Below are positions 17,442 through 38,098 of a stretch of DNA of 64,000 bases, in pieces (the first letter of the stretch is position 1; each line of letters opens with the position of its first letter). The notes beneath the pieces were generated by a model. That model was not told where the DNA came from. It did no database searches and was given only the letters and a program-made list of their open reading frames with translations. The position numbers were made by a program, and so were the translations under genes. The stretch is taken from the NCBI RefSeq assembly GCF_001921215.1, contig NZ_MSIF01000001.1, forward strand, positions 806,001-870,000, read 5' to 3'. This DNA is from Actinophytocola xinjiangensis. GTDB taxonomy: Bacteria; Actinomycetota; Actinomycetes; Mycobacteriales; Pseudonocardiaceae.

Positions 17442-18047
17442 GTGCTTCGCCTCACCGTCATTGACTGTATTCCGTTGTTCGTCGACGGGCTGAGTTTGTT
17501 GACCGAATCAAGCCCCGAGATGAGTGTCGTCGCGTGTTACGCCTGCGTGCCCACGACGCCGTTACCGCCGACCGACCTGATTCTCGTGGATCTCGGGGTG
17601 GCCGAGCCGGACGTGCTCGACGCGTTGGTCGTCCAGCTGAGCCGGATCGCACCCGTGCTGCTGCTGTCCTCCTCCCCGGCCGAGAGATCCGCCGTCGTCC
17701 GGTTGCTCAGACTGGGCGCCGCCGGGGTTCTCGACCGCAGGGCGAGCAGGGAAAGACTGCTGGCCACCGTCTACGCCATGGGTGTGGCGAGCATCGACGG
17801 CCGGCAGGACACCTCCGACCACCCCGACCACTCGCCGAGGGACGAGGACTCACCGCCGCTGTCCGGTCGGGAGGAACAGGTGCTCGCGCTGATCGCGCTC
17901 GGCATGACCCACCGGCAGGTGGCCTCCCGGCTCGGGATCAGCCCGCACACCGTGGACACCTACGTCAAACGCATCCGCTCCAAGCTCCAGCTCGGGAACA
18001 AGGCGCAGCTGACCAGGCTCGCGGTCCGCCGGGCGATGGCGGTGTGA
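17442..18047 (+). CDS. LuxR/NarL-type regulator with atypical receiver domain
   Basis: A 201-residue protein. The N-terminal half is receiver-like with an Asp in LILVDLG at the phosphoacceptor position, but the acidic pocket is reduced to one Asp (TVIDCIPLF) and the conserved Lys region reads GVLDRR instead of GYLLK. The C-terminal LuxR HTH is intact: LSGREEQVLALIALGMTHRQVASRLGIS followed by TVDTYVKRIRSKL. GTG 17442 sits 6 nt after AGGAGGGAAG. A TTA codon at 17562-17564 is typical of bldA-dependent pathway regulators. No kinase lies nearby. It ends 28 bp from the convergent glycosyltransferase gene and may control the cluster. Confidence 0.85.
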   Translation: MLRLTVIDCIPLFVDGLSLLTESSPEMSVVACYACVPTTPLPPTDLILVDLGVAEPDVLDALVVQLSRIAPVLLLSSSPAERSAVVRLLRLGAAGVLDRRASRERLLATVYAMGVASIDGRQDTSDHPDHSPRDEDSPPLSGREEQVLALIALGMTHRQVASRLGISPHTVDTYVKRIRSKLQLGNKAQLTRLAVRRAMAV

Positions 18048-18075
18048 CGCCGCGCGCCTCGCCCGGTCGGACGGC

Positions 18076-20055
18076 TCACCTCGTCGCGGCCGCGCGGCGC
18101 AGGAACGAGACGAGTTCGGGGACGTGGTGGTCGAAGGTGAACGTGTGCCGGGCCGCCCGCATGTTCGTGCGTGCCACGCGCCTCTTGCGCTCGTCGACGA
18201 GCCGCTCGGCGAGGTCGTCGACGCCGCTGTAGCCGATCCCCACGCCCAGGCGGTCGGCGAGTCGCTCCACCCCGACGAACTGACCCGCGTTGCGGCGGAA
18301 GATCCAGGGCAGGCCGGCGATCGCATACGTGCTGATCCTGGCCGGCAGGTTGATGTCGGTCCAGGCGGCACTGCGCAGGTCCCCGCCGTTGTCGCTGGTG
18401 AACACGTGCAGCCAGGCCGCGTCGTAGCGGGACAGCTCGGCCACCCAGTCCCGGGGGTAGAGATGGCCGTGCAGGTGCAGGAAAGGCGTTTCCTCGGCTG
18501 TGGCGAGCCAGCCGGGAGCCCACCGCCGGTACGACGAGCCGTAGTGGTGCACGTGGATGCCGCGCTCGGCCAGTTCGAGCATCGGCTCGATGAGGATCCG
18601 GCCGATGCACACCGTGTGGACCTCGTCGGGATCGTCGCCGACCGGGTCGGCCCACTGGTCGGTCATCCAGTCGCGCAACGGGAGGTCACCGTCGAGAACC
18701 ATGCTGGGGCCCACCGGCCCCGCCGGGCCGAGGATGGTGTCGAACCAGTCGCGGGACTCCGGTGAGATGAAGATCCGCCCGGCGCTGTTCAGGACGAGGT
18801 CCCGCAGCGCGGGCCACGACCCGGCCTGCATCGCCGCCGTCGTGCCCTCCTTGAGGTGCAGGACGAACGGGGCGAGCCCGGCTTGCTGGACCTGGTGCAG
18901 CAACGGAAGGTTGGGCCAGTTCAACGATCCGTAGATCACGTCCGGGGCGAAGTCCCGCACCCGGTCGTACCAGTGCCGGTCGTGGGGCAGGTACTCGGCG
19001 TCGCCGAAGGGCAGCGGGCCCGTGGTCTCCCAGAAGTGCGGGTGGGTGGACCACAGTCCGCCCAGGTGGTGTCCGTCGCGTTCCAGCGCCAGCAGCTGGT
19101 CGGGGTTGTAGCCCATGGCGCCCACCAACAGGATGCGCAGGCCGTCGGTCCGTCGCCGGGCGCCGGCGCGTTCGGCCTGGGGATCCAGGTAGCGAACCCG
19201 CTCGTCCACCGGCTCGCCCTGGGCCACCGGCTGCCAGTTGAGCCGGGTTCGGCTGGGCACGCGGTAGAACTGGCGGTAGCGGGACAGGCCGTAGCCGTGG
19301 TTGGCCTGGTTGGCGTTCTGTGCGCCCCGGCCCGCGATGATCTTGTGTCGCTGGTCGGGGTGGTCGCCCCACTCGCAGGTGGTGGCGCCGGTCGCGGCGA
19401 AGCGGGCCCCGCGCGCCCGCAACCCCTCCCAGAAGTCGAGTTCGAGGGAGTCCGACACCAGCTCGGTTCGTTCCCGCCAGCGCACCGTGTCCTCGAAGGT
19501 TCGGCGGTGCACGACCTGGACGAGCGCGAGATAGTTTCCACTTCGGACGTCCAATCGGGAGATCCCGGTCCGGTCGGCCTTGGTCGCGTCGGTCGTGCCG
19601 GCCTCGGGCAGCCGGTCGCCGTGCAGGGTCGCGGTGGACTCGACCGGCCGCACCGCGATGTCCCACGGCCGCCGCACCCACCGCAGTCCGGAATGGACCA
19701 GGTGCAGCCCGGGATCGGCCGAGAGCGCGGCGACGCAGCGGCTGAGGTGGTCGCGGTCGTAGTAGTCGTCCGAGGGCAGGTAGGCGATGAACTCCCCCCG
19801 CGCCAACCGGGTCGCCGCGTTCAGCGCGGCGCCCAGGCCTCGGTTGTCCGTCCACCGCAGGTAGCGGATACGGCTGTCGTCGTAGGCCCGGACCAGCTCG
19901 TCGGTCGTGTCGTCCGATCCGTCGTTGACCACGACGAGCTCGAAGTCCGGGAAGTCCTGCGCGAGCAGACTGCCGATCGCGCGGGTGAGAAAGGCGTCCT
20001 GGCGGTAGGTCGGCATGAGCACCGACACCGTTGGCCGGTCAGGTGTAGCTGGCAT
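18076..20055 (-). CDS. Two-domain glycosyltransferase (GT2 + GT-B-like)
   Basis: A 659-residue protein. Residues about 8-240 are a GT2/GT-A domain: VSVLMPTYRQDAFL, LVVNDGSDD, then YLPSDDYYD as the DXD-type metal site. From about 285 a second Rossmann-like unit starts (LRILLVGAMGYNPDQLLALE) and resembles the acceptor/donor halves of GT4-like enzymes, ending near STYAIAGLPWIFRRNAGQFVG. The frame stays open far upstream, but ATG 20055 has AAGGGGG at the right distance. It is the last gene of the leftward operon. Two transferase domains in one chain suggest two sugar transfers or one active plus one accessory domain. Confidence 0.75.
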   Translation of the reverse strand: MPATPDRPTVSVLMPTYRQDAFLTRAIGSLLAQDFPDFELVVVNDGSDDTTDELVRAYDDSRIRYLRWTDNRGLGAALNAATRLARGEFIAYLPSDDYYDRDHLSRCVAALSADPGLHLVHSGLRWVRRPWDIAVRPVESTATLHGDRLPEAGTTDATKADRTGISRLDVRSGNYLALVQVVHRRTFEDTVRWRERTELVSDSLELDFWEGLRARGARFAATGATTCEWGDHPDQRHKIIAGRGAQNANQANHGYGLSRYRQFYRVPSRTRLNWQPVAQGEPVDERVRYLDPQAERAGARRRTDGLRILLVGAMGYNPDQLLALERDGHHLGGLWSTHPHFWETTGPLPFGDAEYLPHDRHWYDRVRDFAPDVIYGSLNWPNLPLLHQVQQAGLAPFVLHLKEGTTAAMQAGSWPALRDLVLNSAGRIFISPESRDWFDTILGPAGPVGPSMVLDGDLPLRDWMTDQWADPVGDDPDEVHTVCIGRILIEPMLELAERGIHVHHYGSSYRRWAPGWLATAEETPFLHLHGHLYPRDWVAELSRYDAAWLHVFTSDNGGDLRSAAWTDINLPARISTYAIAGLPWIFRRNAGQFVGVERLADRLGVGIGYSGVDDLAERLVDERKRRVARTNMRAARHTFTFDHHVPELVSFLRRAAATR

Positions 20056-20084
20056 TCGCTGTGCCCCCTTGGCGGCGGTACGGG

Positions 20085-21620
20085 TCACCAACCGAGATAG
20101 GTCGCCGGCGGCAACCAGTCCGGTGAGGTGAGCCCGAAGTGGTCCTGGACCAGTCGTTCGGTGTTGCTCAACGCCCCTTCCATCCAGGTCGGGATGTCCG
20201 AGTACGCCGAGCCGCAGACGAACACGTCGTGCCGTGGCCATGGCCGGCGCATCCTGGCGGCGACGTGTGAGCCTCGGCGTCCCGGTCGCCAGCCGTGGTA
20301 GCCGCCGCCGAACGGGTCGTGGCCCCAGTCCCGGACCACCATCCAGGTGGGGGAGGGGACCGCGGTGCCGTGCAGCAGCCGCAGCTGCGCGATCACGTCC
20401 TGGCCGATCCGCGCCAGCTGGTGCGGGTCCGGCCCGTCCAGGGCGCCGCCTCGCCGCCAGTGCGCGAACGCCGGCGCCGGGGTGAAGAAGTCGTAGGCCC
20501 GGTCGTCGTTGCACGCCACCGACAGGACGGCGTCGCCGCCGGTGACCCGGTGGTCGTCGAGGTAGTACACCTGACGGATCGGCAGGTCGGTGAGTGACCG
20601 CGTCGCGCCGCGACCGACCACGTCCTCCCACCACGGCTCGGCGAACCCCAGCACCACCCGAAGCACCCGGTGCGACACCACCGATTCCACGTCCTGGCGC
20701 CAGGACGGTAGGTCCACGGCCGGCACGTCCAGGTCCATCAGGTCCAGCGCCCGGGGCGGCACGGCCAGGACCAGCGCCGGTGCGGTCACCTCGCGGGTCT
20801 CGCCACCGGTCTCCCGCAGGCTCAGCTCGATCCGTTGGCCCGCGCCGGGCAGCCGCACGCCGCGTACCTCGGTCCCGGTCCACACCTGGCCGCCGTGGGC
20901 CTCGACGGCGCGCCGCAGCGCGTGCACCAGGCTCCGGGTGCCGTCGCGGAACCGGAAGTAGCGCACCGCGCGGCCGAAGCCGGCGAGCTGGGTCTGCATC
21001 ACCTCGCCGGCCGACCAGTTGTTGCAGTCGTAGCCGTTCCCGTCGCGCAGGTAGGCGTAGGACTCCAGGTCGAGGTGGTCGGAGACGGTGTTCCAGAACC
21101 CGTACTCGAACAGCGGCCGGCCGCCGAGTTCGAGCTCCTCCTTGACCCGGTTCCAGTCGCGACGGGTCCCCGGGACCACCGCCCCCGCCTTGTCCAGGAC
21201 CCGGGCGATGACGTCCTCGAACAGCTCGTCGGGCGTGCGGCCCCGGGCGTCGGGTCCGACGTCGTAGGGCACGCGGTCGGGGTCCCCGGCGATCTCGCCC
21301 GCGCGGAAACGCCGGCCCCGCAGGTAGAACAGCGTGTCGGCGTGCCCGGTCGCCGCGAGCTGCCGGTACGGCACCGCGAGGTGGTCGGCCATGGCCCGCA
21401 CCAGGACGTGGTCGGAGGTGAAGCGCATGGCGCCGAGGTCCAGCGGACGTCCCGGCGAGCCGGGAACATCCATGCCCGCCGCCCGGCCACCGACGTGGCG
21501 CGCGGACTCGACGACCAGGACCTGGTGGCCGGCACGCTGCAAGCGCCACCCGGCGTACAGGCCGGCGACACCGGCGCCGACCACGACCACGTCCGGCGCG
21601 TGCGCCCAGTCGCTGCTCAT
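20085..21620 (-). CDS. FAD-dependent amine oxidase-family protein
   Basis: A 511-residue flavoprotein of the monoamine/L-amino-acid oxidase fold. The N-terminal dinucleotide motif VVVGAGVAGLYAGWRLQ (near residues 11-27) continues to ESARHVGGRA, and the C-terminal FAD-binding GSAYSDIPTWMEGAL is present. It would oxidise a C-N or C-C bond in an intermediate of the cluster; the substrate is unknown. ATG 21620 follows GGAGGTCCAG. It lies 14 bp after the Eis-like gene and 29 bp before the glycosyltransferase, clearly one operon. A protoporphyrinogen-oxidase-like or desaturase role is possible. Confidence 0.8.
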   Translation of the reverse strand: MSSDWAHAPDVVVVGAGVAGLYAGWRLQRAGHQVLVVESARHVGGRAAGMDVPGSPGRPLDLGAMRFTSDHVLVRAMADHLAVPYRQLAATGHADTLFYLRGRRFRAGEIAGDPDRVPYDVGPDARGRTPDELFEDVIARVLDKAGAVVPGTRRDWNRVKEELELGGRPLFEYGFWNTVSDHLDLESYAYLRDGNGYDCNNWSAGEVMQTQLAGFGRAVRYFRFRDGTRSLVHALRRAVEAHGGQVWTGTEVRGVRLPGAGQRIELSLRETGGETREVTAPALVLAVPPRALDLMDLDVPAVDLPSWRQDVESVVSHRVLRVVLGFAEPWWEDVVGRGATRSLTDLPIRQVYYLDDHRVTGGDAVLSVACNDDRAYDFFTPAPAFAHWRRGGALDGPDPHQLARIGQDVIAQLRLLHGTAVPSPTWMVVRDWGHDPFGGGYHGWRPGRRGSHVAARMRRPWPRHDVFVCGSAYSDIPTWMEGALSNTERLVQDHFGLTSPDWLPPATYLGW

Positions 21621-21634
21621 GCCTGGACCTCCGC

Positions 21635-22600
21635 TCACACGATGAACGGGCAGTAGAAGTCGGTCTCGGCGGCCTGCGCCCGCAGCCGGTCGGAGGCGGT
21701 GTCGAGCAGGGCGACCCACAGGTAGTCGTACATGCGCCGGACCTCGATGCCGCGGTTGGCGCCCCGGACCCAGCGGATCGCGTCCGAGAGCATGCAGTTC
21801 TCGATGCTCACCCGGGTGACGTGGTCGAAGTTGAGCGCGGCGAGCGCGAGCGCGTCACGCACCCGGGGGCTCGGTGAGATCAGCTCCTGCGCCTGGAACT
21901 CGCTGTGCCCGACGCCGCCGACCCAGTGCGGGGCGATCCCGAACCGCAGGTAGCCCTCGTCGCCGTCGGCGGACGTCGCGAGCAGGCAGAAGGGCTTCGA
22001 GCCGCTGCTGGTCAGGGTGTGTGCCAGCCACCAGGTCTTGGGCAGGACGGGCATGCCTGGCACGACCTCGGCGGTGGCCTGGTAGATCTCGCGGCAGCGG
22101 TCGACGGACTGGTCGGCCGGCACCACCTCGAAGCTCATCCCCGGCGAGGGTTTGACCTCCCTGGCGAACTCCGGAGTCACCGCCACGTCGACGGCGATGC
22201 CGGCCGGGTTGCCGTTGAGCGCCCTGGACAGCGGCACCGAGGCGGCCTTGAACACGGCGGCCTCGGCCCCGATACGGGTGGCCTGGTCGCCCTGCGCCCG
22301 GCACAGGGCGAAGTGGGTGCCGCCGCCCCGGTAGGGCAGTGCCACCCCGCCGAAGCACCCGACGGTGGCGGCGACCCGGCTGCCGTCACGCAGTCCCAGG
22401 TCGGTCCGCAGCCCGGCCTGGACCGCGACCACCTCCCCGGCGCCGGTGACGGCCGCGAAGGACAGGTCCGGATCCAGGGTGTCCCACCACAGGTCGCGGT
22501 CACGTTCGTCGACGACACCGCCGAAGGCGTGCTCGTGGACCTCGAACGCGGCCGGCCACAGCTCGGCCCGCAGGTTCTCGATCGTGATGTCACTGCGCAT
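21635..22600 (-). CDS. Eis-like GNAT N-acetyltransferase
   Basis: A 321-residue protein. A GNAT-like core lies at about 40-150, with ATVGCFGGVALPYRGGGTHFALC resembling the acetyl-CoA loop and following helix of Eis-type proteins. A second domain begins near 155, ending in DFYCPFIV. Mycobacterial Eis is about 80 residues longer, so the C-terminal part may be reduced. It would acylate an amine on the cluster product or serve as self-protection. It starts inside the luxC-like gene (11-bp overlap). The Eis assignment rests on pattern only; another GNAT subfamily is possible. Confidence 0.5.
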   Translation of the reverse strand: MRSDITIENLRAELWPAAFEVHEHAFGGVVDERDRDLWWDTLDPDLSFAAVTGAGEVVAVQAGLRTDLGLRDGSRVAATVGCFGGVALPYRGGGTHFALCRAQGDQATRIGAEAAVFKAASVPLSRALNGNPAGIAVDVAVTPEFAREVKPSPGMSFEVVPADQSVDRCREIYQATAEVVPGMPVLPKTWWLAHTLTSSGSKPFCLLATSADGDEGYLRFGIAPHWVGGVGHSEFQAQELISPSPRVRDALALAALNFDHVTRVSIENCMLSDAIRWVRGANRGIEVRRMYDYLWVALLDTASDRLRAQAAETDFYCPFIV

Positions 22601-23831
22601 CTGTCACCCATCCGCTGATCGTGGTGTGCCGTGTGAACTCGTGGAGCAGGTCGTGGCCGTCCCAGTGCCGGTCGAAGGTGAGCGCGGTGCCGATCGGCAC
22701 GACGCGGTCGAGGCGACGCGAGCCGAGCGACCGGCACAACGCCCGGAGCTCCTCGCGCCCGAACCCGAAGTGGCCGAGGGTCTGGTGCCGGTCGGTGAGC
22801 AGCGCCGCGAGGTCGCCGCACTCGTCGACCCGCGCGATGGCCAACACGCCGGCGCCGAGCCAGTCGCGGGGCAGCCGCGCCGGATCCGGCACGCCGAGAT
22901 AGGTCATGACCTCGCCGTCGAACTCGACGGTGCCAGCCACGCCGTCGGCCGCCAGACCGTAGCCGCGTACCCGCTTCTCGACGGCCATCGCCGGGTCGAG
23001 CCGGAGGTCGCGGCCGTCGACCTCGGCGCGGATCCGCCCGCGCAGGTCCCGCCACGCGGCGGTGGCGGTCGGCTGCGCGCCGACGAGGACCAGCGCCCTG
23101 GGCGAGGAGCACGCCGCCTGGTCGAACGGCAGGACGTCGTCGCACAGCCCCGCGGCCAGCCGGGCGCGCTGCCACCCCGGGGCGTCGAGGTAGGCGGCGG
23201 CGTTCACCACGGCCAGCGAGTGGCGGTTGGGGAACACCAGGTCCCTGGCGTGCGCCGGCAGCGCGGCACGCCGCAGGTCGGTGATCGCCTGGTCGCCACC
23301 CCAGATCACCCTGAGGTCGCAGGAGCGCGCCAGGGCGTCGGTGACCTCGTCGTCGTGCGGGTGGCCGACGAACAGCTGGGTACGGGCCAGCACGGGATCC
23401 GCCGTGGCGAACGCGGTCGCGATGTCGTCGAGGATGCGCGCGGTCAACGCGCCGGCCCGACCCGACACGCGAACGATGTTCCTGTTGCCGCACAGGGCGG
23501 ACAGCGCCCAGGCGTAGCCGAGGACGGCGTCGACGTTGCTGGGCGGGTGGTGCAGGACGAGGCCGACCGGGCGTCGCACGCCGTCACCGGACCCGGTCAG
23601 CTCGGCGCGCATCGCGGTGAGCTGGGCGGGACGCAGGAAGAACCCGAGCGCGGCGAGTTCGGGGTGGTCGGCACGGGCGCGCGCACCGAGCCAGGTCTGG
23701 CTGAGGGAGGCCAGCACGTCGACGACCCGCTCGTCGCCGACGGCCAACCCGCTGTCGGCCACCAGCGGGGGCACCCGCTCGGCCGGCGTCGGCGGGCCGT
23801 CGGGGCAGAGGCGTTCGACGAGGGTGCTCAC
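22590..23831 (-). CDS. LuxC-like acyl-CoA/acyl-protein reductase
   Basis: A 413-residue protein of the LuxC family (aldehyde-dehydrogenase fold), which reduces an enzyme-bound acyl thioester to an aldehyde with NADPH. The catalytic Cys241 lies in FDQAACSSPRAL, and the HHPPSNVD, NRNIVRVSG and FPNRHSLAVVN stretches are typical. GTG 23831 overlaps the luxE-like stop as GTGA, so LuxE and LuxC are translationally coupled, as expected for a complex. The acyl donor is probably delivered through the upstream ACP and AMP ligase. No luciferase (luxAB) is present, so the aldehyde is a biosynthetic intermediate, not a light substrate. Confidence 0.85.
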   Translation of the reverse strand: MSTLVERLCPDGPPTPAERVPPLVADSGLAVGDERVVDVLASLSQTWLGARARADHPELAALGFFLRPAQLTAMRAELTGSGDGVRRPVGLVLHHPPSNVDAVLGYAWALSALCGNRNIVRVSGRAGALTARILDDIATAFATADPVLARTQLFVGHPHDDEVTDALARSCDLRVIWGGDQAITDLRRAALPAHARDLVFPNRHSLAVVNAAAYLDAPGWQRARLAAGLCDDVLPFDQAACSSPRALVLVGAQPTATAAWRDLRGRIRAEVDGRDLRLDPAMAVEKRVRGYGLAADGVAGTVEFDGEVMTYLGVPDPARLPRDWLGAGVLAIARVDECGDLAALLTDRHQTLGHFGFGREELRALCRSLGSRRLDRVVPIGTALTFDRHWDGHDLLHEFTRHTTISGWVTDAQ

Positions 23832-24883
23832 CGGGGGCCGCCTCCCGCGTCGCCGCAGCCCCGGGCTTCCGCCCTGGGCAGCCGCCCCAGCACCCGGAAC
23901 CTGCGTCCCGGCCGCTCGCCGTCGTCGATCCCCACCACGACCCCGAGGTCCTCGGTGAGCACGACGTTGCCCGGGTAGGAGGTCGGCAGGGCGCTGATCA
24001 CCTCGATGACGCCGGGCACCCCGACGGGCTGCTCCGACCAGGTCCTCGGGTCGCGGATGATGACCTGCGCGAGGTCCGGGCAGTAGTAGGTGTCGTCGCG
24101 GCTGTCCCCGAGGAAGATGGTGCCGAGCTGCTCGACCATGCCGTAGTAGCCGAACACCTCGGTCAGCCCGCTGACCTCGGCGAGCCGGGACCGGAACGTC
24201 GCGTCGTCGACGCCGCCCTCGTGCAGCCGCTTCCACCCGCCGGAGTGCACGAGCACCGCCCGCGTCAGGTCGATTCCGTGGTCACGCGCCAGCGGGTACA
24301 GGTGGTGCCACACCATCACCGTCGTTCCACACAGGAGGAACCGTCCCGTCGGGTGCCGTCCGAGGAACTCGGTGACCGCCCGGGGGTCCGTCCGGCCGTC
24401 CTCGTCGACGAGGTAGGTGTGGTCGGTGCCCAGGGGCAGCAGTCCCACGACGCTGGCCGTGCGTGCCGCCATCGCGCCGTTCTCGAGACGCGGCCGGGTG
24501 TCGACGACCATCATCGGCAGGCGCGCCGGCCCGAGCACGGTGCGAAACGCCGACGCCACCCGGCGGCTCTGTTCGGCGGCGGCCGCCTGGTCGAGGAAGA
24601 CGCGGCTGCGTTCACCGGTGGTCCCCGAGGACGTCGCGACCCGGAACACCTCGTGCTCGGCGACGCTGCGCAGCTTGTGGGTCTTGAACATCCTGGCCGG
24701 GAGCCAGGGCAGCGCGGCGAGTCCGGTACCGGGGTGGCCGCTCGTGTCGATCGCGGTCAGGATCCGGTCGTAGGCGGCACACCGGTCGCGGTGGTCGCGG
24801 ACGCGTTCACGGACGACGGGCAGCAGGCGGTCCGCCCGCTGCTGGTCGGTCAGCGAGTACTCCTCCCGGCGGTCAGCGCGCAT
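23828..24883 (-). CDS. LuxE-like acyl-protein synthetase
   Basis: A 351-residue member of the LuxE family within the ANL superfamily. FRVATSSGTTGERSRVF (near residues 80-96) is the phosphate-binding loop, FGYYGMVEQLGTIFL and TYYCPDLAQVIIRD are LuxE hallmarks, and TEDLGVVVGID lies near the C-terminus. In bioluminescence LuxE activates a fatty acid and hands it to LuxC; here it probably moves an acyl group from acyl-ACP or acyl-AMP to the LuxC homologue. ATG 24883 overlaps the AMP ligase end by 11 bp. Confidence 0.82.
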   Translation of the reverse strand: MRADRREEYSLTDQQRADRLLPVVRERVRDHRDRCAAYDRILTAIDTSGHPGTGLAALPWLPARMFKTHKLRSVAEHEVFRVATSSGTTGERSRVFLDQAAAAEQSRRVASAFRTVLGPARLPMMVVDTRPRLENGAMAARTASVVGLLPLGTDHTYLVDEDGRTDPRAVTEFLGRHPTGRFLLCGTTVMVWHHLYPLARDHGIDLTRAVLVHSGGWKRLHEGGVDDATFRSRLAEVSGLTEVFGYYGMVEQLGTIFLGDSRDDTYYCPDLAQVIIRDPRTWSEQPVGVPGVIEVISALPTSYPGNVVLTEDLGVVVGIDDGERPGRRFRVLGRLPRAEARGCGDAGGGPR

Positions 24884-26276: not shown

Positions 26277-26515
26277 CCGTCGACCAGGCCGTGCTCGGCG
26301 AGGATCTCCAGACCCTGCGCGAAGCTGCTGAAACCGATGACCTCCTCGACGCTCAGGCTGACGCCGAAGACGTTCTCCACGGACTGGACGATCTCCATGT
26401 GTGCCAACGAGTTCCAGCTGCTGGTCTCGCGGTAGTTGAGGCTCACCGGGTCCACGTCATCGGGAAGGTCGAGCACCTTGACGAACACCTCGAGCAGAGA
26501 GCTGTGCGTGGACAT
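26273..26515 (-). CDS. Acyl carrier protein
   Basis: An 80-residue carrier protein with the pantetheine site in SSWNSLAHME, Ser36; the usual Asp-Ser-Leu is Asn-Ser-Leu here. The rest follows the four-helix ACP pattern (LDLPDDVDPVSL, FGVSLSVEEV). ATG 26515 has GGGAG five nt upstream; a longer in-frame opening was not used. It lies 26 bp after the SDR gene and overlaps the ligase gene. It would carry the acyl chain seen by the SDR, LuxE and LuxC homologues. Confidence 0.9.
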   Translation of the reverse strand: MSTHSSLLEVFVKVLDLPDDVDPVSLNYRETSSWNSLAHMEIVQSVENVFGVSLSVEEVIGFSSFAQGLEILAEHGLVDG

Positions 26516-27276: not shown

Positions 27277-27305
27277 GGTGCGCTCCTGTTCGTCGCCGTT
27301 CTGGC

Positions 27306-29895: not shown

Positions 29896-30282
29896 GTGCC
29901 GAACGACCACACCCGGGAGTCGCGTGGCCCGGTACTCATCGAGGCCGACACGGTCGAGCAGGCGCTGCGGTGCCTGACCGACGTCGCCGAGACCATGGGG
30001 GCCGGCATCGCCGACGGCTGTGTCGACTCGGTGGTCGTGTGCTGGGAGCAACCGGCCGGCGTGGACCCCGCGCCTGACCCCGCGCCCGTCCTGTCGGCGC
30101 ACGACGACGACCAGCCGTGCCTGGTGTTCACGGTGGACAGGGTGGGCACCGGGCCGGAACTGGCCCGGGTGCTCAACGACTGTGCCCTGGCCGCCGCGGG
30201 CCGGGCCGGCTCGACCGCGCGGGTGGCCGTGGTCATCGGCTGCCTGTCGGCCGGCGCCGTCGCACTGGCGGGGTCGTCGTGA
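29896..30282 (+). CDS. Hypothetical protein, 128 residues
   Basis: I do not recognise this protein. It is acidic in the N-terminal two thirds (EADTVEQALRCLTDVAETMG), has a short Pro/Asp-rich stretch (DPAPDPAPV) and ends in a hydrophobic, Ala/Gly-rich helix (VVIGCLSAGAVALAG). GTG 29896 follows the kinase stop by one base and its own stop overlaps the exporter start, so it is tightly coupled in the operon. High third-position GC supports it as real. Confidence 0.7.
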   Translation: MPNDHTRESRGPVLIEADTVEQALRCLTDVAETMGAGIADGCVDSVVVCWEQPAGVDPAPDPAPVLSAHDDDQPCLVFTVDRVGTGPELARVLNDCALAAAGRAGSTARVAVVIGCLSAGAVALAGSS

Positions 30283-31583
30283 GCGGGGCGCGGCCCACGG
30301 CCGGGCCGGACGAACTCCCCGGGCCGCGATCGGACGGGACCGGACCGGCGGACCTGCGCCGGGCGAAGCTGCTGTTCATCGTGTCGGCGGCCCTGTCAAG
30401 CGGTCAGTTCACCCGTGGCGTGTTCATCATCTACATGCTGTCCCAGGGCCTGAGCCTGGTCCAGGTCGGCATCGCGGAGAGCTTCTACCAACTCGGCCGG
30501 TTCGCCAGCGAGGTCCCGTTCGGCGCGCTCGCCGACCGGTGGCAGCGCCAACGGGTGATCCAGCTCGGGTACGCGATCCACGCCCTGGCCATGCTGCTCT
30601 ACCTGGTGGGGTCGGGTCTGCTGCTCTACTCGATCGTGTTCGTCCTGCTCGGTGCCCGAATGGCCGCCCAGAGCGGCGCGGACAGCGCGTTGCTCTACGA
30701 CTACCTCCAGACGCACGGGGCCGAGGACGAGTTCGCGAGGATCAACGGTCAGTCGGCGGCGGCGGGCTACGTGGTTCTCGCGACGGCGACGTTCACCGGT
30801 GGTCTGCTGCTCGGCGTCGGGCAGTGGTTGCCGTTCGTCGGCGAGGCGCTGTGCGTGGCGGTCGCCGCCGTCCTCATCGGACGGTTCCCGGAGACAGTGC
30901 CCGACGCGCGGACCGGCGTGGAGGCCGTGCGCTACTGGCAGACCATCGGCACCGCGGTACGGATCATCCGCGGGACCCGGCTGCTGACGCTGTTCGTCCT
31001 GTTCACGGCGTTGCTGGAGACCGGGACGGGCGTCATCAGCATCCTGTCGCAGGACTACTTCGTCGACCGGGGCCTGTCGGTGCCGCAGACGACGTTCTTC
31101 CTCGGGCTGGCCATCCTGATCAGTGCGGTCGCCGCGTTCCACTCCCACCGTCTGGTGAAGCGGGGCCCCACCACGACCCTGATCGTCTCCGCGGCGATCT
31201 ACGTCGTGGGCATGGTGGTGATGGTGAGCCACCACCCGGTCGCGGCGGTGATCGGCTTCCTGCTGGTGTTCATCAACATCGACTTTCTCTACCCGGCGCT
31301 GCGCCAGTTCTTCAACCGGCACACGACCTCGGCGGTCCGCAGCACGGCGCTGTCGTTGCAGTCGTTCCTGGCCGGCCTGGGCGCGTTCGTGGCGTTCCCC
31401 ATCGCCACCCTGGTGGTCCACCACGCCGGCTACAGCGCACTGGTCATCGGCATCGCCGCGATCACCGCGCCGCCCATGGCACTGATCATCGTCCGGTCGC
31501 TGCGCCTGGTCAGGGTGACGGCCGGGGAGACGAACCAGGACACCGGCCAGCGGGCCGGGCACAAGGAGGCAGAGGACCGATGA
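30279..31583 (+). CDS. MFS transporter
   Basis: A 434-residue MFS exporter with about 12 membrane segments and the A-motif-like FGALADRWQRQRV after helix 2. The protein begins with a 25-residue polar cytoplasmic tail. GTG 30279 overlaps the previous stop (GTGA). Sitting between argH and argG in the rightward operon, it probably exports the cluster product and adds to self-resistance with the APH-type kinase. Confidence 0.85.
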   Translation: MSGARPTAGPDELPGPRSDGTGPADLRRAKLLFIVSAALSSGQFTRGVFIIYMLSQGLSLVQVGIAESFYQLGRFASEVPFGALADRWQRQRVIQLGYAIHALAMLLYLVGSGLLLYSIVFVLLGARMAAQSGADSALLYDYLQTHGAEDEFARINGQSAAAGYVVLATATFTGGLLLGVGQWLPFVGEALCVAVAAVLIGRFPETVPDARTGVEAVRYWQTIGTAVRIIRGTRLLTLFVLFTALLETGTGVISILSQDYFVDRGLSVPQTTFFLGLAILISAVAAFHSHRLVKRGPTTTLIVSAAIYVVGMVVMVSHHPVAAVIGFLLVFINIDFLYPALRQFFNRHTTSAVRSTALSLQSFLAGLGAFVAFPIATLVVHHAGYSALVIGIAAITAPPMALIIVRSLRLVRVTAGETNQDTGQRAGHKEAEDR

Positions 31584-31624: not shown

Positions 31625-32836
<1,212 letters not shown>

Positions 32837-32841: not shown

Positions 32842-33789
32842 GTGCGCGTAGTTTTCCTCGGACACCAGACCTGGGGTCGGGTCGCCCTCGAAGCGCTGCT
32901 CAAGGCCGGGCACGACGTGCCGCTGGTCCTCACGCACCCGCGTACCGAGCACCCGTACGAGACCATCTGGTCCGACTCGGTCGCCGAGTTCGCCGCCAGC
33001 AACGGCATTCCCTGTGTCGAACGCACCTACGCCAACGACGCGGAGGCGGCCGACCTGATCGCACGCGGTGACGCCGAACTGCTGGTGTCGTCCAACTGGC
33101 GCACCTGGGTGTCGCCCCAGATCTACCAACTCGTTCCGCACGGCGCCATCAACGTGCACGACGGCCTGCTGCCGCGCTACGGAGGTTTCGCGCCGCTGAA
33201 CTGGGCGGTGGTCAACGGTGAGACCGAGGTGGGCGTGACCGTCCACTTCATGACCGACGAGTTCGACCTGGGCGACATCATCGAGCAGCGCCGCGTCCAG
33301 GTCGGCCCGACCGACACCTCGACCGATCTCTACCACCGGACGCTGCCACTGATCGGTGAACTCACCGTGTCGGCGGTGCGCGCCATCGAGAACGGCACGG
33401 TGACGCGCACGCCCCAGGATCCCGCCGAGGCGACCTTCTTCCACAAGCGTGCCCGGCGTGACTCACTGATCGACTGGACCAGGGAGGCCGAGGAGATCTG
33501 CTGCCTGGTCCGCGCGCAGTCGCCGCCCTACCCGGCCGCGTACACCAGCTTCCGTGGTGCGGAACTGGAGGTGCTGGCCGCCTCGGTGTCCGAGCGTCCC
33601 TACGGGGGCACGCCGGGGCGGATCTTCTGCCGTGCGGAGGGCGGGGTGGCCATCGTCGCGGGCAGCCGGGCGCGGACCGGACACAGCCGGGCGGTCGTGC
33701 TGCACGAGGTCCGCCTCGGTGACGGCGACCCGGTCAAGGCCACCGAGTTCTTCCGGCGCATGGGCGGTTACCTCGGCACCGAGGACTGA
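32842..33789 (+). CDS. Formyltransferase-family protein (methionyl-tRNA formyltransferase-like)
   Basis: A 315-residue protein with the formyl_trans_N fold. NVHDGLLPRYGG (near residue 106) carries the HxxLLPxxxG-type folate/catalytic motif, with Asn and His conserved, and a DLGDIIEQRRV motif follows. A C-terminal domain resembling Fmt_C begins near 210. It probably transfers a one-carbon formyl group from 10-formyltetrahydrofolate to an amine, on an amino sugar or amino acid of the product, rather than to Met-tRNA. GTG 32842 begins 5 bp after argG. Confidence 0.82.
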   Translation: MRVVFLGHQTWGRVALEALLKAGHDVPLVLTHPRTEHPYETIWSDSVAEFAASNGIPCVERTYANDAEAADLIARGDAELLVSSNWRTWVSPQIYQLVPHGAINVHDGLLPRYGGFAPLNWAVVNGETEVGVTVHFMTDEFDLGDIIEQRRVQVGPTDTSTDLYHRTLPLIGELTVSAVRAIENGTVTRTPQDPAEATFFHKRARRDSLIDWTREAEEICCLVRAQSPPYPAAYTSFRGAELEVLAASVSERPYGGTPGRIFCRAEGGVAIVAGSRARTGHSRAVVLHEVRLGDGDPVKATEFFRRMGGYLGTED

Positions 33790-33894: not shown

Positions 33895-35076
33895 ATGCGC
33901 AATCCCGCGCAGGTCCAGGCCGACAGTTCGCTGGTGATGAACGGCGGCCCACGGCGAATCACCCACGAACTCGTCGAGGACACGGGCATCGCCGTCACCG
34001 CCGCCGACGACGTCGCCGACATCGTCCGAACAGGACGGACGGTGTACTGGGGCGGCGGTCCTCGGAGCAAGCGGCTCGAACGGGAGTTCGCCGACCACAT
34101 CGGACGGTCGATGGCGTTCTTCCACAACTCGGGCACGGCCGCGTTGCAGACCGCCCTGTTCGCCCTCGGGGTCACCGACGGCACACCGGTCGCGATCACC
34201 GACTCCGGCTTCGTCGCCTCCCTGAACGTCATCCAGCACCTGCGGGCCCGCCCGGTGTTCCTGCCGACCGCACCCGAGACGTTGCTGTGCCAGGAGGACG
34301 TGTCGGACTGGGTGGACGGCGTCGACGTGCACACCGCGCTGTTGACCCACTTCTTCGGCAACGTCCTCGACGCCCCCGCGACGTTCGCGTCCACCGGGGC
34401 GGAGTACCTCGTCGAGGACGCGGGCCAGGCACACGGCGCGACACTGCGCGGTCGGCCGGTCGGCAGCTTCGGCGACATCGGCTCGTTCGCCGGCTCGCAC
34501 AAGAAGCTGGTGACCTCCGGCCAGGGCGGCCTGAACGTCTACGACGACCCCACCATCGACTTCCGGATGCGGGCCTACGCCCACCACGGCCACAGCCAGG
34601 GCGAGAACATCTACCCCGGCTACAACTTCCGCGGCGGCGAGATGGAGGCGACGCTGGGGCTCGCGGCCCTCGCCGACCTGCCCACCCGGGTCGCCGCGCG
34701 CAACCGCACGGCGGCGGCGATCACCGAGATCCTGGAGAAGGCGGGGCTGACGGTGGCCCGCACGCCGGCGGGACTCGACTGCACCCCGGCCTGGTTCGAC
34801 GTCCCGGTGCTGCTCGACGAGAGCTGGCTCGGTCATCGCGACTGGCTGATCGACGTCCTGCGCCAGGACGGCATCGAGCTGTGGAAGTACCCCGCGCTGA
34901 TCGCGTTGCCGTGGGTGAAGCCGTACATGGCCAACCACGGCTGGTGGGGCGAGCGTGAGGAGGAACTGCTGCGCGTCGAACGGCGGCTGTGGGACCGCCT
35001 GGTGCTCATCCCGACCCAGATCTCGGCCGAGGACGGCCGGGTGGTGGCCGAGGCGCTCGCCGAGATCCTGTCCTGA
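33895..35076 (+). CDS. DegT/DnrJ/EryC1/StrS-family PLP aminotransferase
   Basis: A 393-residue sugar aminotransferase-type protein. HNSGTAALQTAL forms the phosphate-binding site, VEDAGQAHGA the PLP-ring contact Asp, and SHKKLVTSGQGG contains the PLP lysine, probably Lys204. It should transfer an amino group to a keto-sugar. Followed by BlsE-like and CGA-synthase-like genes, it fits the C4' amination step in blasticidin/mildiomycin-type nucleosides. ATG 33895 has GGAGGAGC upstream; an earlier GTG at 33862 is possible. Confidence 0.88.
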   Translation: MRNPAQVQADSSLVMNGGPRRITHELVEDTGIAVTAADDVADIVRTGRTVYWGGGPRSKRLEREFADHIGRSMAFFHNSGTAALQTALFALGVTDGTPVAITDSGFVASLNVIQHLRARPVFLPTAPETLLCQEDVSDWVDGVDVHTALLTHFFGNVLDAPATFASTGAEYLVEDAGQAHGATLRGRPVGSFGDIGSFAGSHKKLVTSGQGGLNVYDDPTIDFRMRAYAHHGHSQGENIYPGYNFRGGEMEATLGLAALADLPTRVAARNRTAAAITEILEKAGLTVARTPAGLDCTPAWFDVPVLLDESWLGHRDWLIDVLRQDGIELWKYPALIALPWVKPYMANHGWWGEREEELLRVERRLWDRLVLIPTQISAEDGRVVAEALAEILS

Positions 35077-35108: not shown

Positions 35109-36089
35109 ATGCGGCCGAAGTACCTGTTCATCCGAATTCTCGAAGCGTGCAACGCCGACTGCTTCATGTGTGGGTTCGCGCTCTCGCGCGAGACCTACCG
35201 GTTCTCCCCGCAGGACCTGGCCCGGCTGCTGCCCAACGCGACACGGTCCGGTGTCCGGTTCGTTCGGTTCACCGGCGGTGAGACGTTGATGCACGGCGAG
35301 ATCGCCGAACTGGTGGAGACCGCGGTCGCGCACGGTATGCGCACCTCGCTCATCACCAACGGCATGCTGTTGCCGAAGAAGGCCGCGCGCCTGGCCGAGG
35401 CCGGACTCAGCCAGGTCATCGTGAGTCTCGACGGGGCGAGCGCCTCGACCCACGACTTCTACCGCAACTCGCCTGGCTGTTTCGACAACGCGATGGCCGG
35501 CCTGGTGGACATGCGGGACCTGGGTGTGCTCACCAGGGTCAACTCGGTCGTCGGCCCGCACAACTACCGCGAGGTACCCGCGATGCAGCGGGAGTTCTCC
35601 CGGCTGGGCGTGCGGCGCTGGGAGCTCTCGGCGCTCAAGCTGGCCCGCGAGGTGCTGTACGAGGATCCCGACGACGTGGTGCGGGTCTGCGAACCGGTGT
35701 ACACGCCGGCGGACCCGACCCTGCTGGTACCGCTCGGGAAGCGTTTCTACGGCGACACCGAGGACGAGCGGCACCGGTTCTTCGTGGACGCGATCACCCC
35801 GCGCGCGAGCGGACCGACCTGCCGGGCCACCGACGACGTGATCTTCTACGACCCGAAGGCCGGGTCGGCCTACGCCTGCAGCCTGCTGGCCTACGCGGCC
35901 GACGGCGCGCCGATCAACGTCGAGGCGCGGGAGGGTCGGGCCGTGCCGCTGGAGACACCGACCTTCCGGGCCCATCGCGAGTACTTCCGGGACAGGGGAC
36001 CGCGGAACTGTCGGAACTGCTCGGCGACCGCCGCTGGCTACAGCGACGACGTGCAGCGGCAGGAGTTCCTGCCGGAGTGGCAGTACTGA
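35109..36089 (+). CDS. Radical SAM enzyme (cytosylglucuronate decarboxylase/BlsE-like)
   Basis: A 326-residue radical SAM protein. The [4Fe-4S] motif is ACNADCFMC with Cys14, Cys18 and Cys21; RFTGGETLMH is the SAM-binding GGE motif and IVSLDGAS follows. C-terminal Cys (TCRAT, CRNCS) may hold an auxiliary cluster. The N-terminal stretch resembles BlsE, which decarboxylates cytosylglucuronate in blasticidin S biosynthesis. Its neighbours, a DegT aminotransferase and a CGA-synthase-like enzyme, strengthen that reading. Another sugar-acid decarboxylase or dehydrogenase role remains possible. Confidence 0.75.
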   Translation: MRPKYLFIRILEACNADCFMCGFALSRETYRFSPQDLARLLPNATRSGVRFVRFTGGETLMHGEIAELVETAVAHGMRTSLITNGMLLPKKAARLAEAGLSQVIVSLDGASASTHDFYRNSPGCFDNAMAGLVDMRDLGVLTRVNSVVGPHNYREVPAMQREFSRLGVRRWELSALKLAREVLYEDPDDVVRVCEPVYTPADPTLLVPLGKRFYGDTEDERHRFFVDAITPRASGPTCRATDDVIFYDPKAGSAYACSLLAYAADGAPINVEAREGRAVPLETPTFRAHREYFRDRGPRNCRNCSATAAGYSDDVQRQEFLPEWQY

Positions 36090-36150
36090 CCAGCGGAACC
36101 GACACCCGCGCGGGGGCCGGCCGGCCACCCACAGGACGCGAGGAGCAGCG

Positions 36151-37326
36151 ATGAGAAGATCAGCCGCGGGTTCGTTCCCCGGAACACTGCTGGTGGCCGC
36201 GTTCGACTTCGGCTGGGGTGGGGCCGGCAAGGTGCACCTCATCCTGTCGGAACTGCCGGGGGTGCACGCGGTCGGTGTCGGCAGCACGTTGACCAGGCGC
36301 CTGCTCGGCCCGACCCACATCGACGACTGGATCGGCGAGAACGAGGAGGAGATCAGGGAGTACATCCGCTGCAACGACGTCCGCGCGGCGCTGGTCGTCG
36401 GCCACCTCACGGTCGCGCGGACCCTGATCGACCTCGGCCTGCCGGTGGTGTTCGTCGACAGCCTGCCCTACCTGTGGACGGCGAACGACATGCTGCCGTT
36501 GGACGCGGACGTCTACTGCGCCCAGCTGTGCTACGCGCTGCCGAGCCTGTGCTGGCCGGTGATGCGGACCATCCAGAAGCTGCGCTGGGTCGAGGCCATC
36601 GTGCCGCAGCGGCGGCGCGGGTCTCGCGGCGGTGGCGGCGCGGTCGTCAACGTCGGCGGTCTGCACAGTCTGTACTCGGCGGAGTCGGGGGACCGGTACG
36701 CGCGCTGTGTCCTGCCCGCCGTGCTCACCGGGATCCAGCGCGCGGAGGTCCCGGTGACGGCGGTGTGCGGCAACTTCAACGAGGACCTCGTCCGGATGAT
36801 CCGGGAACACGTGCCGGAGAGTACGTCGGTGGGTCGTCTGCTGCCGCACGAGTTCAACGCGGCCGTCGGGAACGCGGAGGTGCTGTTCACCTCGCCGGGC
36901 AGCACCACGATCCTGCAGGCGGACGCGCTCGGCGTGCCGTTCGTGTTGCTGCCACCGCAGAACGTCAGCCAGATCCTGAACGCCGAATGGCTCGGCCCGC
37001 CCGGCAACGAGATGTCGGCGCTGCGCTGGCCGGCGCACCTGTTCGACCTCGCCGAGTTGGAGGAGTCCCGGCCGCACGGTGAGGAGCACGCGCTCGCCTA
37101 CATCTACCGGGTCATCAAGGAGGTCGAGGCGAGTCCGGACACCGCGACCGAGTTCGCCGCGGTGGCCGAACAGCTCGCGCGGCAGGAGAACCGCCAGACC
37201 CCTGGCCGGCACGGCCGCATGCTCGGCCGGCGCGGCGCCCACCAGGTGGCCCAGTACGTGCGCCAGATGATGCTGGCACCGCCGCGCAGCCCGACCCGAC
37301 GGTCCAGGAGTGCCCATGTGGAGTGA
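36151..37326 (+). CDS. Cytosylglucuronate (CGA) synthase-like glycosyltransferase
   Basis: A 391-residue protein of GT-B type. AAFDFGWGGAGKVHLI at the N-terminus, FVDSLPYLWTAND near residue 100, VVNVGGLHS near 168, TSPGSTTILQADALGVP near 248 and LLPPQNVSQILNAEW near 269 fit the BlsD/MilC family and CGA-synthase-related proteins. BlsD/MilC join cytosine or hydroxymethylcytosine to UDP-glucuronate. No CMP nucleosidase (BlsM/MilB type) is in the window, so the nucleobase source, or even its identity, is open. ATG 36151; the end overlaps the methyltransferase start. Confidence 0.65.
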   Translation: MRRSAAGSFPGTLLVAAFDFGWGGAGKVHLILSELPGVHAVGVGSTLTRRLLGPTHIDDWIGENEEEIREYIRCNDVRAALVVGHLTVARTLIDLGLPVVFVDSLPYLWTANDMLPLDADVYCAQLCYALPSLCWPVMRTIQKLRWVEAIVPQRRRGSRGGGGAVVNVGGLHSLYSAESGDRYARCVLPAVLTGIQRAEVPVTAVCGNFNEDLVRMIREHVPESTSVGRLLPHEFNAAVGNAEVLFTSPGSTTILQADALGVPFVLLPPQNVSQILNAEWLGPPGNEMSALRWPAHLFDLAELEESRPHGEEHALAYIYRVIKEVEASPDTATEFAAVAEQLARQENRQTPGRHGRMLGRRGAHQVAQYVRQMMLAPPRSPTRRSRSAHVE

Positions 37327-38098
37327 CTACACGGCCCAGAACCGGTTGGCGTGGAACGAGATCGCCCAGGCCAGGACGAGCTGGCGGGACGAGCAGGGCC
37401 AGGACGCCGCCTTCTTCCGCGACGGCGGGACCTGTCTGCCCGACCACGTGGCGGACACCGTCGGCGACGTGACCGGGGTGTCGCTGCTGCACCTGCAGTG
37501 CGCGAGCGGCGAGGAGTCGCTGTCCTGGGCGGTCCTCGGCGCCCGGGTCACGGCCGTCGACCTGTCCGACGAGCTGGTTCGCCTCGGGCGCGCGAAGGCC
37601 GCCGAGGCGGGGCTGGCCGTGGACTTCGTCCGGGCCGACGTCGGTGACCTGCCGGCCAGGGTCGCGAACGGCGGGTTCGACGTCACCTACACCGGCGGCG
37701 GTGTGCTTCCCTGGATCCCCGACCTGGACCGGTGGGCGAGGGTGGTGCACGGGTCGCTGCGCCCCGGCGGACGGTTCGTGCTCATGGACGAGCACCCGCT
37801 GCTGCCGTGCCTGCGCGGCGACGACCAGGGCCTGCGGCTGGTGGGCAACTACTTCGGCCGCGACACCGATCCCTCGGTCTACCCCGGCTGGTCACACTTC
37901 CCCGGAGGGGAGGACGCGGTGGCGAACAAGACCCAGTTCGTCTGGCCGCTGGGTGACGTGGTGACGGCGCTGGTGAAGGCCGGGCTGGTCCTCGACCACC
38001 TGCGCGAGTACCCCACCGCCCGGGCGTGGCGGTTCGGCGGTGACGACGGCGTCGGCCGGCGACTGCCCGGTCGTTTCGTGCTGGCCGCGCACCGCTGA
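37316..38098 (+). CDS. SAM-dependent methyltransferase (class I)
   Basis: A 260-residue class I methyltransferase. Motif I reads LLHLQCASGEESLSW near residue 56, followed by VTAVDLSDELV and the post-II region FDVTYTGGGVLPW. No membrane or signal segment. ATG 37316 follows AGGAG by 5 nt and overlaps the previous gene by 11 bp. As last gene of the rightward operon it probably N- or O-methylates the product; blasticidin clusters also carry a late N-methyltransferase (BlsL), but homology to it cannot be judged by eye. Confidence 0.82.
   Translation: MWSDYTAQNRLAWNEIAQARTSWRDEQGQDAAFFRDGGTCLPDHVADTVGDVTGVSLLHLQCASGEESLSWAVLGARVTAVDLSDELVRLGRAKAAEAGLAVDFVRADVGDLPARVANGGFDVTYTGGGVLPWIPDLDRWARVVHGSLRPGGRFVLMDEHPLLPCLRGDDQGLRLVGNYFGRDTDPSVYPGWSHFPGGEDAVANKTQFVWPLGDVVTALVKAGLVLDHLREYPTARAWRFGGDDGVGRRLPGRFVLAAHR

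What the first reader, a model, noticed from the sequence alone, without database searches (positions are those of the whole stretch)
17442..38098. Undescribed-looking hybrid cluster: nucleoside-type sugar module joined to a LuxE/LuxC aldehyde module
Seen: two divergent operons share one promoter region. One carries SDR, ACP, AMP ligase, LuxE, LuxC, Eis-like GNAT, FAD oxidase and a two-domain glycosyltransferase. The other carries argH, APH kinase, exporter, argG, formyltransferase, DegT, BlsE-like radical SAM, CGA-synthase-like and methyltransferase. Known: CGA synthase, radical SAM decarboxylase and DegT enzymes build the core of blasticidin/mildiomycin-type nucleosides; LuxE/LuxC turn acyl chains into aldehydes. 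I know of no product joining these halves. Inference: a guanidino- or arginine-containing glycosyl nucleoside (or relative) carrying a group built from an acyl-derived aldehyde.
Basis: partly seen in the sequence, partly recalled or inferred. Interest (0 to 1): 0.85.

Follow-up and report, generated by a model that had tools for sequence, protein, structure and literature searches.

The report
Nucleoside cluster with borrowed glycan cassette
A bacterium that its genes mark as an actinobacterium carries a gene cluster that looks able to make an unknown relative of the antibiotics blasticidin and mildiomycin, combined with a five-gene set otherwise seen mainly in surface-sugar gene clusters; the product is unknown and no experiment has been done.

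Summary
Window 17.4-38.1 kb carries 19 genes in two divergent runs around a 241-bp gap. The plus run has a BlsE-type radical SAM enzyme (466 bits, cut-off 400), a CGA-synthase-like protein (279.5, cut-off 300; 49 of 54 near-invariant residues kept), a DegT aminotransferase, an ArnA-like formyltransferase and a second, deeply divergent ArgG/ArgH pair. The minus run has adjacent SDR, ACP, AMP ligase, LuxE and LuxC genes. A Catenulispora MAG has the same five genes (ACP and SDR exchanged) 7 kb from BlsE, with homologues of 10 of the 19 genes on one 32-kb contig and no PseI found, so the pairing is unlikely to be chance. The five-gene set itself is known from flagellin and pseudaminic-acid glycan clusters. 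Arginine supply is the simplest role for ArgG/ArgH; the closest ArgH found is in the Rhodococcus fascians att locus, where argH, argG and a formyltransferase gene are neighbours. Best reading: a base-4-amino-pentopyranoside with an arginine-derived part and a group made by a captured glycan cassette. Product, base and cassette chemistry are inferred. New variant of a known kind.

The parts
17598..18047 (+). LuxR/GerE-type regulator (longer start possible at 17424)
   Evidence: PF00196 4.4e-16; compare LuxR-type MilO of mildiomycin (passages)
18076..20028 (-). glycosyltransferase, N-terminal GT2 domain plus a C-terminal part of about 350 aa without Pfam match
   Evidence: PF00535 3.1e-28 on residues 2-106; second domain read by eye as GT-B-like, not tested
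20085..21620 (-). FAD amine/L-amino-acid oxidase
   Evidence: PF01593 3.6e-36; best solved relatives are 8t8a amine oxidoreductase and 7eih/7eii FAD enzyme, L-Lys oxidase
21635..22600 (-). Eis-like GNAT acyltransferase
   Evidence: PF17668 8e-6, 26.9 bits, cut-off 25; Eis-type NCBIfam models far below cut-off; no match in the plasmid collection
22590..23831 (-). LuxC-type acyl reductase, Cys241 kept
   Evidence: PF05893 2.6e-23; Cys conserved in 8 of 8 aligned
23828..24883 (-). LuxE-type acyl-protein synthetase, Cys343 kept
   Evidence: PF04443 1.2e-43; Cys conserved in 8 of 8 aligned; PDB 7xc6 LuxE 1.1e-10
24873..26276 (-). AMP-forming ligase
   Evidence: PF00501 1.1e-49
26273..26515 (-). acyl carrier protein
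   Evidence: PF00550 1.9e-4, 22 bits, cut-off 20.8; Ser of the DSL motif kept, Asp changed to Asn
26542..27276 (-). FabG-like SDR
   Evidence: PF13561 1.2e-62; TIGR01830 1e-70 but below cut-off; start
27277..27517 (.). divergent intergenic region between the two gene runs
   Evidence: no sigma-70-type match
27518..29008 (+). ArgH, secondary-metabolism type
   Evidence: TIGR00838 467.6 bits, cut-off 279.5; 38% to own primary ArgH; 55.5% to att-locus ArgH
29064..29894 (+). APH-type kinase
   Evidence: PF01636 1.8e-18; HGDFRG and LDWSD motifs shared with the Catenulispora protein
29896..30282 (+). 128-aa ORF without family match
30279..31583 (+). MFS exporter
   Evidence: PF07690 2.4e-22
31625..32836 (+). 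ArgG, secondary-metabolism type
   Evidence: PRK00509 510.1 bits, cut-off 334; 44% to own primary ArgG; clade with att and two Streptomyces copies, support 0.984
32842..33789 (+). ArnA/Fmt-like formyltransferase, N..H and D motif kept
   Evidence: PF00551 and PF02911; ArnA chains best in PDB; motif
33895..35076 (+). DegT aminotransferase with PLP lysine kept
   Evidence: PF01041 3.5e-49; 64.7% Streptacidiphilus, 51% Catenulispora; Lys aligned with that of PseC
35109..36089 (+). BlsE-type radical SAM decarboxylase
   Evidence: TIGR04466 465.9 bits, cut-off 400; PDB 7vob/7voc 6e-128; 123 of 139 near-invariant residues kept
36193..37326 (+). CGA-synthase-like glycosyltransferase (ATG alternative start 36151)
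   Evidence: TIGR04467 279.5 bits, cut-off 300; 49 of 54 near-invariant residues kept
37316..38098 (+). SAM-dependent methyltransferase
   Evidence: PF08241 2.1e-12

Best explanation
One biosynthetic gene cluster (17.4-38.1 kb) for an unknown CGA-type nucleoside. Proposed course: the CGA-synthase-like enzyme joins UDP-glucuronate to cytosine or a like base; the BlsE enzyme removes the carboxyl to give the base-pentopyranoside; DegT puts an amine on the ring (probably C4'); the ArnA-like formyltransferase formylates it, finally or as a passing cover, as ArnB/ArnA do on UDP-Ara4N (recalled). ArgG/ArgH make arginine on the spot as a building block, and the FAD amino-acid oxidase may turn it into the 2-keto acid, standing in for the proposed PLP oxidase MilM of mildiomycin. 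The SDR-ACP-ligase-LuxE-LuxC cassette, captured from a pseudaminic-acid-type glycan cluster, loads an acid on the ACP and hands it through LuxE Cys343 to LuxC Cys241 for reduction to an aldehyde-level group that ends on the amine or an added sugar. GT, GNAT and methyltransferase decorate; MFS exports; APH and GNAT are candidates for self-protection. Shown: gene content, order, families, kept catalytic residues, one further co-occurrence. Inferred: every substrate, the base, the order of steps and the product.
For: BlsE above its cut-off and closest to solved BlsE, 123 of 139 near-invariant residues kept; the CGA-synthase-like protein keeps 49 of 54. DegT and formyltransferase keep their catalytic motifs. 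In Catenulispora all five cassette genes are adjacent, in the window's order but for ACP and SDR exchanged, 7 kb from BlsE; 10 of the 19 genes have homologues there at E 1e-5 or better, two of them weak (formyltransferase 30% over 157 aa; CGA synthase 29.5% over 227 aa). No PseI was found in that MAG. LuxE and LuxC cysteines kept in 8 of 8. The host genus has pse clusters without the cassette: neither the own pse stretch nor the pse stretches fetched from five congeners show LuxE, LuxC, ligase or ACP of the cassette. ArgG/ArgH are 44% and 38% identical to the own primary pair; the lowest own-primary ArgH identity among 22 relatives is 61%. Residues recalled as citrulline contacts are kept. MilM/MilN roles as proposed in PMC11784345 (passages); BlsE product in PMC3715490 (passages).
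Against: No MilB/BlsM-type hydrolase match in the genome. Among the 19 genes no BlsF (its model hits only the CGA synthase, 61 bits vs 150), arginine aminomutase, MilN-like aldolase, ATP-grasp ligase or NRPS showed up, so how arginine would be attached is unexplained. The CGA synthase is under its model cut-off. Only one other genome was found that joins the halves, on a MAG contig, and it has no ArgG/ArgH near BlsE. The BlsE tree joins window, Catenulispora, S. filipinensis and a Lysobacterales MAG with support of only 59. By identity the window's LuxE is nearer to Nonomuraea (57%) than to Catenulispora (50%), so capture may have happened twice. Relatives' ArgG also include a type only 33-34% identical to the own primary, so divergence of ArgG alone proves no new role.
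Confidence: 0.55

Rival explanations
1. Two neighbouring but separate systems: the plus run makes a nucleoside, the minus run (Lux cassette, GNAT, oxidase, glycosyltransferase) decorates a surface glycan, for example the host's own pseudaminic acid.
For: The own genome has a pse cluster on contig C7. The minus run ends in a GT2, and in Aeromonas islands a GT2 follows luxC.
Against: Five of five congeners have PseI, and the pse stretches fetched from them hold no cassette (G041 only in part because its contig ends). Catenulispora has cassette plus BlsE but no PseI was found. The divergent 241-bp gap suggests shared control (inference).
Confidence: 0.2
2. ArgG/ArgH do not feed arginine but convert a formamide or ureido group on the nucleoside into an amidine or guanidine, working with the formyltransferase.
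For: argH, argG and a formyltransferase gene are contiguous in the att locus, which holds the nearest ArgH relative found and, after two Streptomyces plasmids, the nearest ArgG; no closer ArgH turned up in 396 genomes of the phylum (best other about 42%). In the window the formyltransferase gene follows ArgG by 5 bp. A position recalled as part of the aspartate pocket, Ser or Thr in 26 of 26 relatives, is Ala in 4 of 4 secondary ArgG.
Against: The att formyltransferase is a one-domain protein with 30% identity over 90 aa, so probably not an orthologue. Residues recalled as citrulline contacts are kept in 4 of 4 secondary ArgG. Catenulispora has a formyltransferase but no ArgG/ArgH.
Confidence: 0.12
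3. A decayed or silent island, a mosaic brought in by transfer without a working product.
For: Strain-specific: none of 5 congeners has BlsE above cut-off; the parts have different closest relatives.
Against: All 19 reading frames are intact with normal GC3 (0.89-0.95), and catalytic residues checked are kept.
Confidence: 0.08

Closest known systems
Blasticidin S / arginomycin / mildiomycin clusters (CGA-derived nucleosides)
   Same: CGA synthase, BlsE/MilG radical SAM decarboxylase, DegT enzyme, methyltransferase, MFS, LuxR-type regulator
   Different: No BlsM/MilB-type hydrolase match in the genome; no BlsF, BlsG, MilM or MilN seen among the 19 genes; DegT only about 26-33% identical; adds Lux cassette, formyltransferase, APH, FAD oxidase, own ArgG/ArgH
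Catenulispora MAG Bin1.32, contig JABFWL010000681.1
   Same: Homologues of 10 of 19 genes, including all five cassette genes adjacent to each other
   Different: ACP and SDR exchanged; has MilB-like, Ham1-like, DHDPS and class I/II aminotransferase genes, A-T and condensation-domain proteins and an ABC transporter-like gene (by eye); no ArgG/ArgH or FAD oxidase homologue found; gene order otherwise different
Flagellin glycosylation islands (Aeromonas group II, Enterobacteriaceae) and actinobacterial pse clusters
   Same: ACP, 3-oxoacyl-ACP reductase, AMP ligase, LuxE, LuxC genes (PMC7874193 passages; PMC4875605 one passage)
   Different: There beside pseudaminic acid or polysaccharide genes; here beside nucleoside-type genes
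att locus of Rhodococcus fascians pFiD188
   Same: argH, argG and a formyltransferase gene side by side; ArgH 55.5%, ArgG about 50% identical
   Different: Asparagine-synthase-like, crotonase-family, TauD dioxygenase, adenylate-forming and ArgJ genes beside it; formyltransferase probably not orthologous; no BlsE or Lux genes annotated in the stretch

Membership tests
CGA-derived nucleoside cluster (blasticidin/mildiomycin kind) | BlsE/MilG-type radical SAM decarboxylase | tested here: met
   TIGR04466 465.9 vs 400; PDB BlsE 6e-128; CxxxCxxC and C238, C257, C301, C304 kept, C259 lost, as also in Catenulispora and a Lysobacterales MAG
CGA-derived nucleoside cluster (blasticidin/mildiomycin kind) | CGA synthase | tested here: inconclusive
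   279.5 vs cut-off 300; 49 of 54 near-invariant residues kept
CGA-derived nucleoside cluster (blasticidin/mildiomycin kind) | CMP/hmCMP hydrolase BlsM/MilB | tested here: not met
   no PF05014 match at E 0.001 in the own genome
CGA-derived nucleoside cluster (blasticidin/mildiomycin kind) | DegT-family PLP enzyme | tested here: met
   PF01041; catalytic Lys kept
CGA-derived nucleoside cluster (blasticidin/mildiomycin kind) | product with cytosyl pyranoside core | not testable with these tools
   needs chemistry
Glycan-type ACP-SDR-ligase-LuxE-LuxC cassette | five genes contiguous | tested here: met
   all five adjacent in the minus run, read SDR-ACP-ligase-LuxE-LuxC; Catenulispora, Nonomuraea and Deinococcus read ACP-SDR-ligase-LuxE-LuxC
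Glycan-type ACP-SDR-ligase-LuxE-LuxC cassette | acyl-carrying cysteines of LuxE and LuxC | tested here: met
   Cys343 and Cys241, 8 of 8; their role is recalled from bioluminescence work
Glycan-type ACP-SDR-ligase-LuxE-LuxC cassette | pseudaminic acid or polysaccharide genes beside it | tested here: not met
   neighbours are nucleoside-type genes and one GT2 gene
Argininosuccinate synthase/lyase | family models and active-site residues | tested here: met
   both above cut-off; ArgG contacts kept (recalled positions); but ArgH departs at 69 of 183 and ArgG at 11 of 82 near-invariant positions

The most novel reading that the evidence does not exclude
The cluster makes a new class of nucleoside in which a pentopyranosyl amine is N-formylated and then turned into an amidine by a formyltransferase-ArgG-ArgH relay (a route also hinted at by the att locus), and which carries an aldehyde-derived group from a captured glycan cassette.
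Probability: 0.08. Interest if true: 0.85.

Novelty: new variant of a known kind. Interest (0 to 1): 0.55.

Why it matters
The ACP-SDR-ligase-LuxE-LuxC cassette sits in many flagellin and surface-glycan clusters, where the passages that I saw only suggest a 'liposugar' (PMC7874193, PMC4875605). A small soluble nucleoside that carries its product would make that chemistry directly testable. It would also extend the CGA-type antibiotics, and point to a separate clade of ArgG/ArgH used in specialised metabolism.

Tried and rejected
Luminescence: the luciferase-like protein at 39266-40294 lies among acyl-CoA catabolism genes and was not taken as part of a lux system.

Cassette serving the host's pseudaminic acid: kept as a rival but lowered, since congeners' pse stretches lack it and no PseI was found in Catenulispora.

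Recent duplication of the host's own argGH: rejected by 44%/38% identity.

Co-inherited argG-argH-formyltransferase trio: only the arg genes are close to att; the formyltransferases are probably not orthologous.

S. filipinensis (L053) as a second hybrid: shares GNAT, Ham1-like, nucleotide hydrolase-like and CGA-like genes with Catenulispora but has an A-T-condensation protein and no reductase domain, and no LuxE. A weak LuxC-like hit in its genome (31%, 1.6e-7) was not followed.

Led nowhere: plasmid-collection searches with GT, FAD oxidase, GNAT and DegT; the first ArgG script failed and was rewritten. The DegT tree had only 6 rows: it groups window, Streptacidiphilus, Catenulispora and S. 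filipinensis with support 97. No structure prediction or fold search was run.

Flanks were at most 10 kb there; L037 and L038 are short and L108 is a partial match. Whole-genome LuxE search covered 27 BlsE genomes, not those of L033-L035. L053 and L054 gave no CGA-synthase row at the threshold, and L056 and L059 were left out of its BlsE count. L059's BlsE region looks broken and was a poor row. Gene calls come from my own codon-usage script, not a standard annotator. Own-genome ArgG identity was first written from memory as 45%; recomputed as 44%.
Full report
What is there. The window lies in an unnamed 9.5-Mb genome of 72 contigs; that it is an actinobacterium is inferred from its GC content and its relatives. 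My gene calls give 19 genes from 17.6 to 38.1 kb. Minus strand, reading away from the gap: SDR, ACP, AMP ligase, LuxE, LuxC, GNAT, FAD oxidase, glycosyltransferase. Plus strand: ArgH, APH, a 128-aa ORF, MFS, ArgG, formyltransferase, DegT, BlsE, CGA-synthase-like, methyltransferase. A LuxR-type gene sits at the left end. The gap is 241 bp after moving the SDR start to 27276. No sigma-70-type promoter was found, which says little for a high-GC genome.

The nucleoside half. The radical SAM protein passes the BlsE model (465.9 vs 400 bits) and matches solved BlsE chains best. Against BlsE proteins of 27 other loci it keeps 123 of 139 near-invariant residues (L056 and L059 were left out). The CGA-synthase-like protein scores 279.5 against 300 but keeps 49 of 54 near-invariant residues of 27 relatives (L053 and L054 gave no row at the threshold used). 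BlsE turns cytosylglucuronate into cytosylarabinopyranose (PMC3715490, passages). DegT keeps the PLP lysine; its nearest relatives are in Streptacidiphilus (64.7%) and Catenulispora (51%), not in the other CGA-type loci (26-33%). The formyltransferase is nearest to ArnA in the PDB, whose substrate, as I recall, is a 4-amino-pentopyranosyl nucleotide; that parallel is inference. No PF05014 (MilB/BlsM-type) match exists in the genome at E 0.001, so the base is open.

The cassette half. ACP, SDR, AMP ligase, LuxE and LuxC form a known set. It is described in Aeromonas and enterobacterial flagellin islands (PMC7874193 and PMC4875605, passages only). The window reads SDR-ACP where Catenulispora, Nonomuraea and Deinococcus read ACP-SDR. 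The C-terminal LuxE cysteine and the LuxC cysteine are conserved in 8 of 8 sequences. LuxE of this type is rare: 3 of 394 sampled genomes of the class at E 1e-30, own included.

Do the halves belong together? Of 30 loci compared with the window genes, one, the Catenulispora MAG contig, has the cassette (its LuxC lies past the end of that locus); homologues of 10 of the 19 window genes lie on that 32-kb contig. A whole-genome search of 27 BlsE genomes found LuxE in 2 (E 1e-10): Catenulispora, beside BlsE, and Paractinoplanes, in a pse cluster on another contig. No PseI was found in Catenulispora, though a MAG may be incomplete. The own genome has a pse cluster elsewhere and PseI occurs in five of five congeners; no LuxE, LuxC, ligase or ACP of the cassette lies in the pse stretches fetched, only one generic SDR match of 30% (G041's contig ends early). 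Whether congeners hold the cassette elsewhere was not searched specifically. A tree of three concatenated cassette proteins places the window beside Catenulispora and next to Nonomuraea (75 for those together), but the window-Catenulispora node carries no printed support; one or two captures are both possible.

ArgG/ArgH. The genome has a second, ordinary pair on contig C67. The window pair is 44% (ArgG) and 38% (ArgH) identical to it. The own primaries reach 96% and 93% to their nearest relatives; among the relatives the lowest identity to the own primary ArgH is 61%, while ArgG relatives include a second type at 33-34%. The window ArgH differs at 69 of 183 near-invariant positions, ArgG at 11 of 82. 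[quoted passage not shown] the nearest ArgG are on two Streptomyces plasmids (56%), then att (50.5%). In 396 genomes of the phylum 26 had an ArgH match at E 1e-90, own included, the others listed at 36-42% identity. The four ArgG form a clade (support 0.984) and all have Ala at a position that is Ser or Thr in the 26 sequences of relatives; positions that I recall as citrulline contacts are kept, although position 182, Ser in all four and in 1J1Z, is Ala or Thr in the 26. In att, argH, argG and a formyltransferase gene are contiguous, but that formyltransferase is probably not an orthologue. Arginine supply is therefore the simpler role, amidine or guanidine building a minor alternative.

How it may work, and what is not known. 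See Best explanation. Shown: content, order, intact frames, catalytic residues, one further co-occurrence. Inferred: substrates, base, order of steps, product. I saw no gene that would obviously attach arginine. Searches of the open-access library (listings read, and passages only of the papers named) showed no report joining CGA-type genes with LuxE/LuxC; most subscription papers are not held.

Noticed in passing
window 255-4645: Catechol siderophore-type operon: 2,3-dihydro-DHB dehydrogenase and DHB-AMP ligase above cut-off, isochorismate synthase (subfamily model above cut-off), then two ORFs without a match at E 1e-30.
   Followed up: no
window 9688-13455: 1255-aa protein with a partial match to type VII secretion-associated mycosin protease (residues 211-500, below cut-off).
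   Followed up: no
window 38780-63999: Region with acyl-CoA dehydrogenases, thiolase, HMGL-like and luciferase-like monooxygenase genes (10 of its genes scanned, to 54638), apparently ordinary catabolism.
   Followed up: partly
window 29896-30282: 128-aa ORF between APH and MFS with no Pfam or NCBIfam match.
   Followed up: no
L053 (Streptomyces filipinensis) 9983-18844: A CGA-type cluster without LuxE that shares GNAT, Ham1-like, nucleotide hydrolase-like and CGA-like genes with the Catenulispora cluster; its DegT lacks the PLP lysine in my alignment.
   Followed up: partly
L056 (Lysobacterales MAG): BlsE-like (42-43%), DegT-like (28%) and CGA-synthase-like (37%) genes together in a MAG named as proteobacterial.
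   Followed up: no
L059 (Streptacidiphilus sp. 4-A2) about 8977-15465: CGA-type cluster with DegT 64.7% identical to the window's; several frames including BlsE look broken, perhaps sequencing error.
   Followed up: no
L200 9714-10886 and L201 18001-19173: Second ArgG genes on two Streptomyces plasmids, in the same clade as window and att ArgG, with no ArgH match among the neighbouring gene calls.
   Followed up: partly
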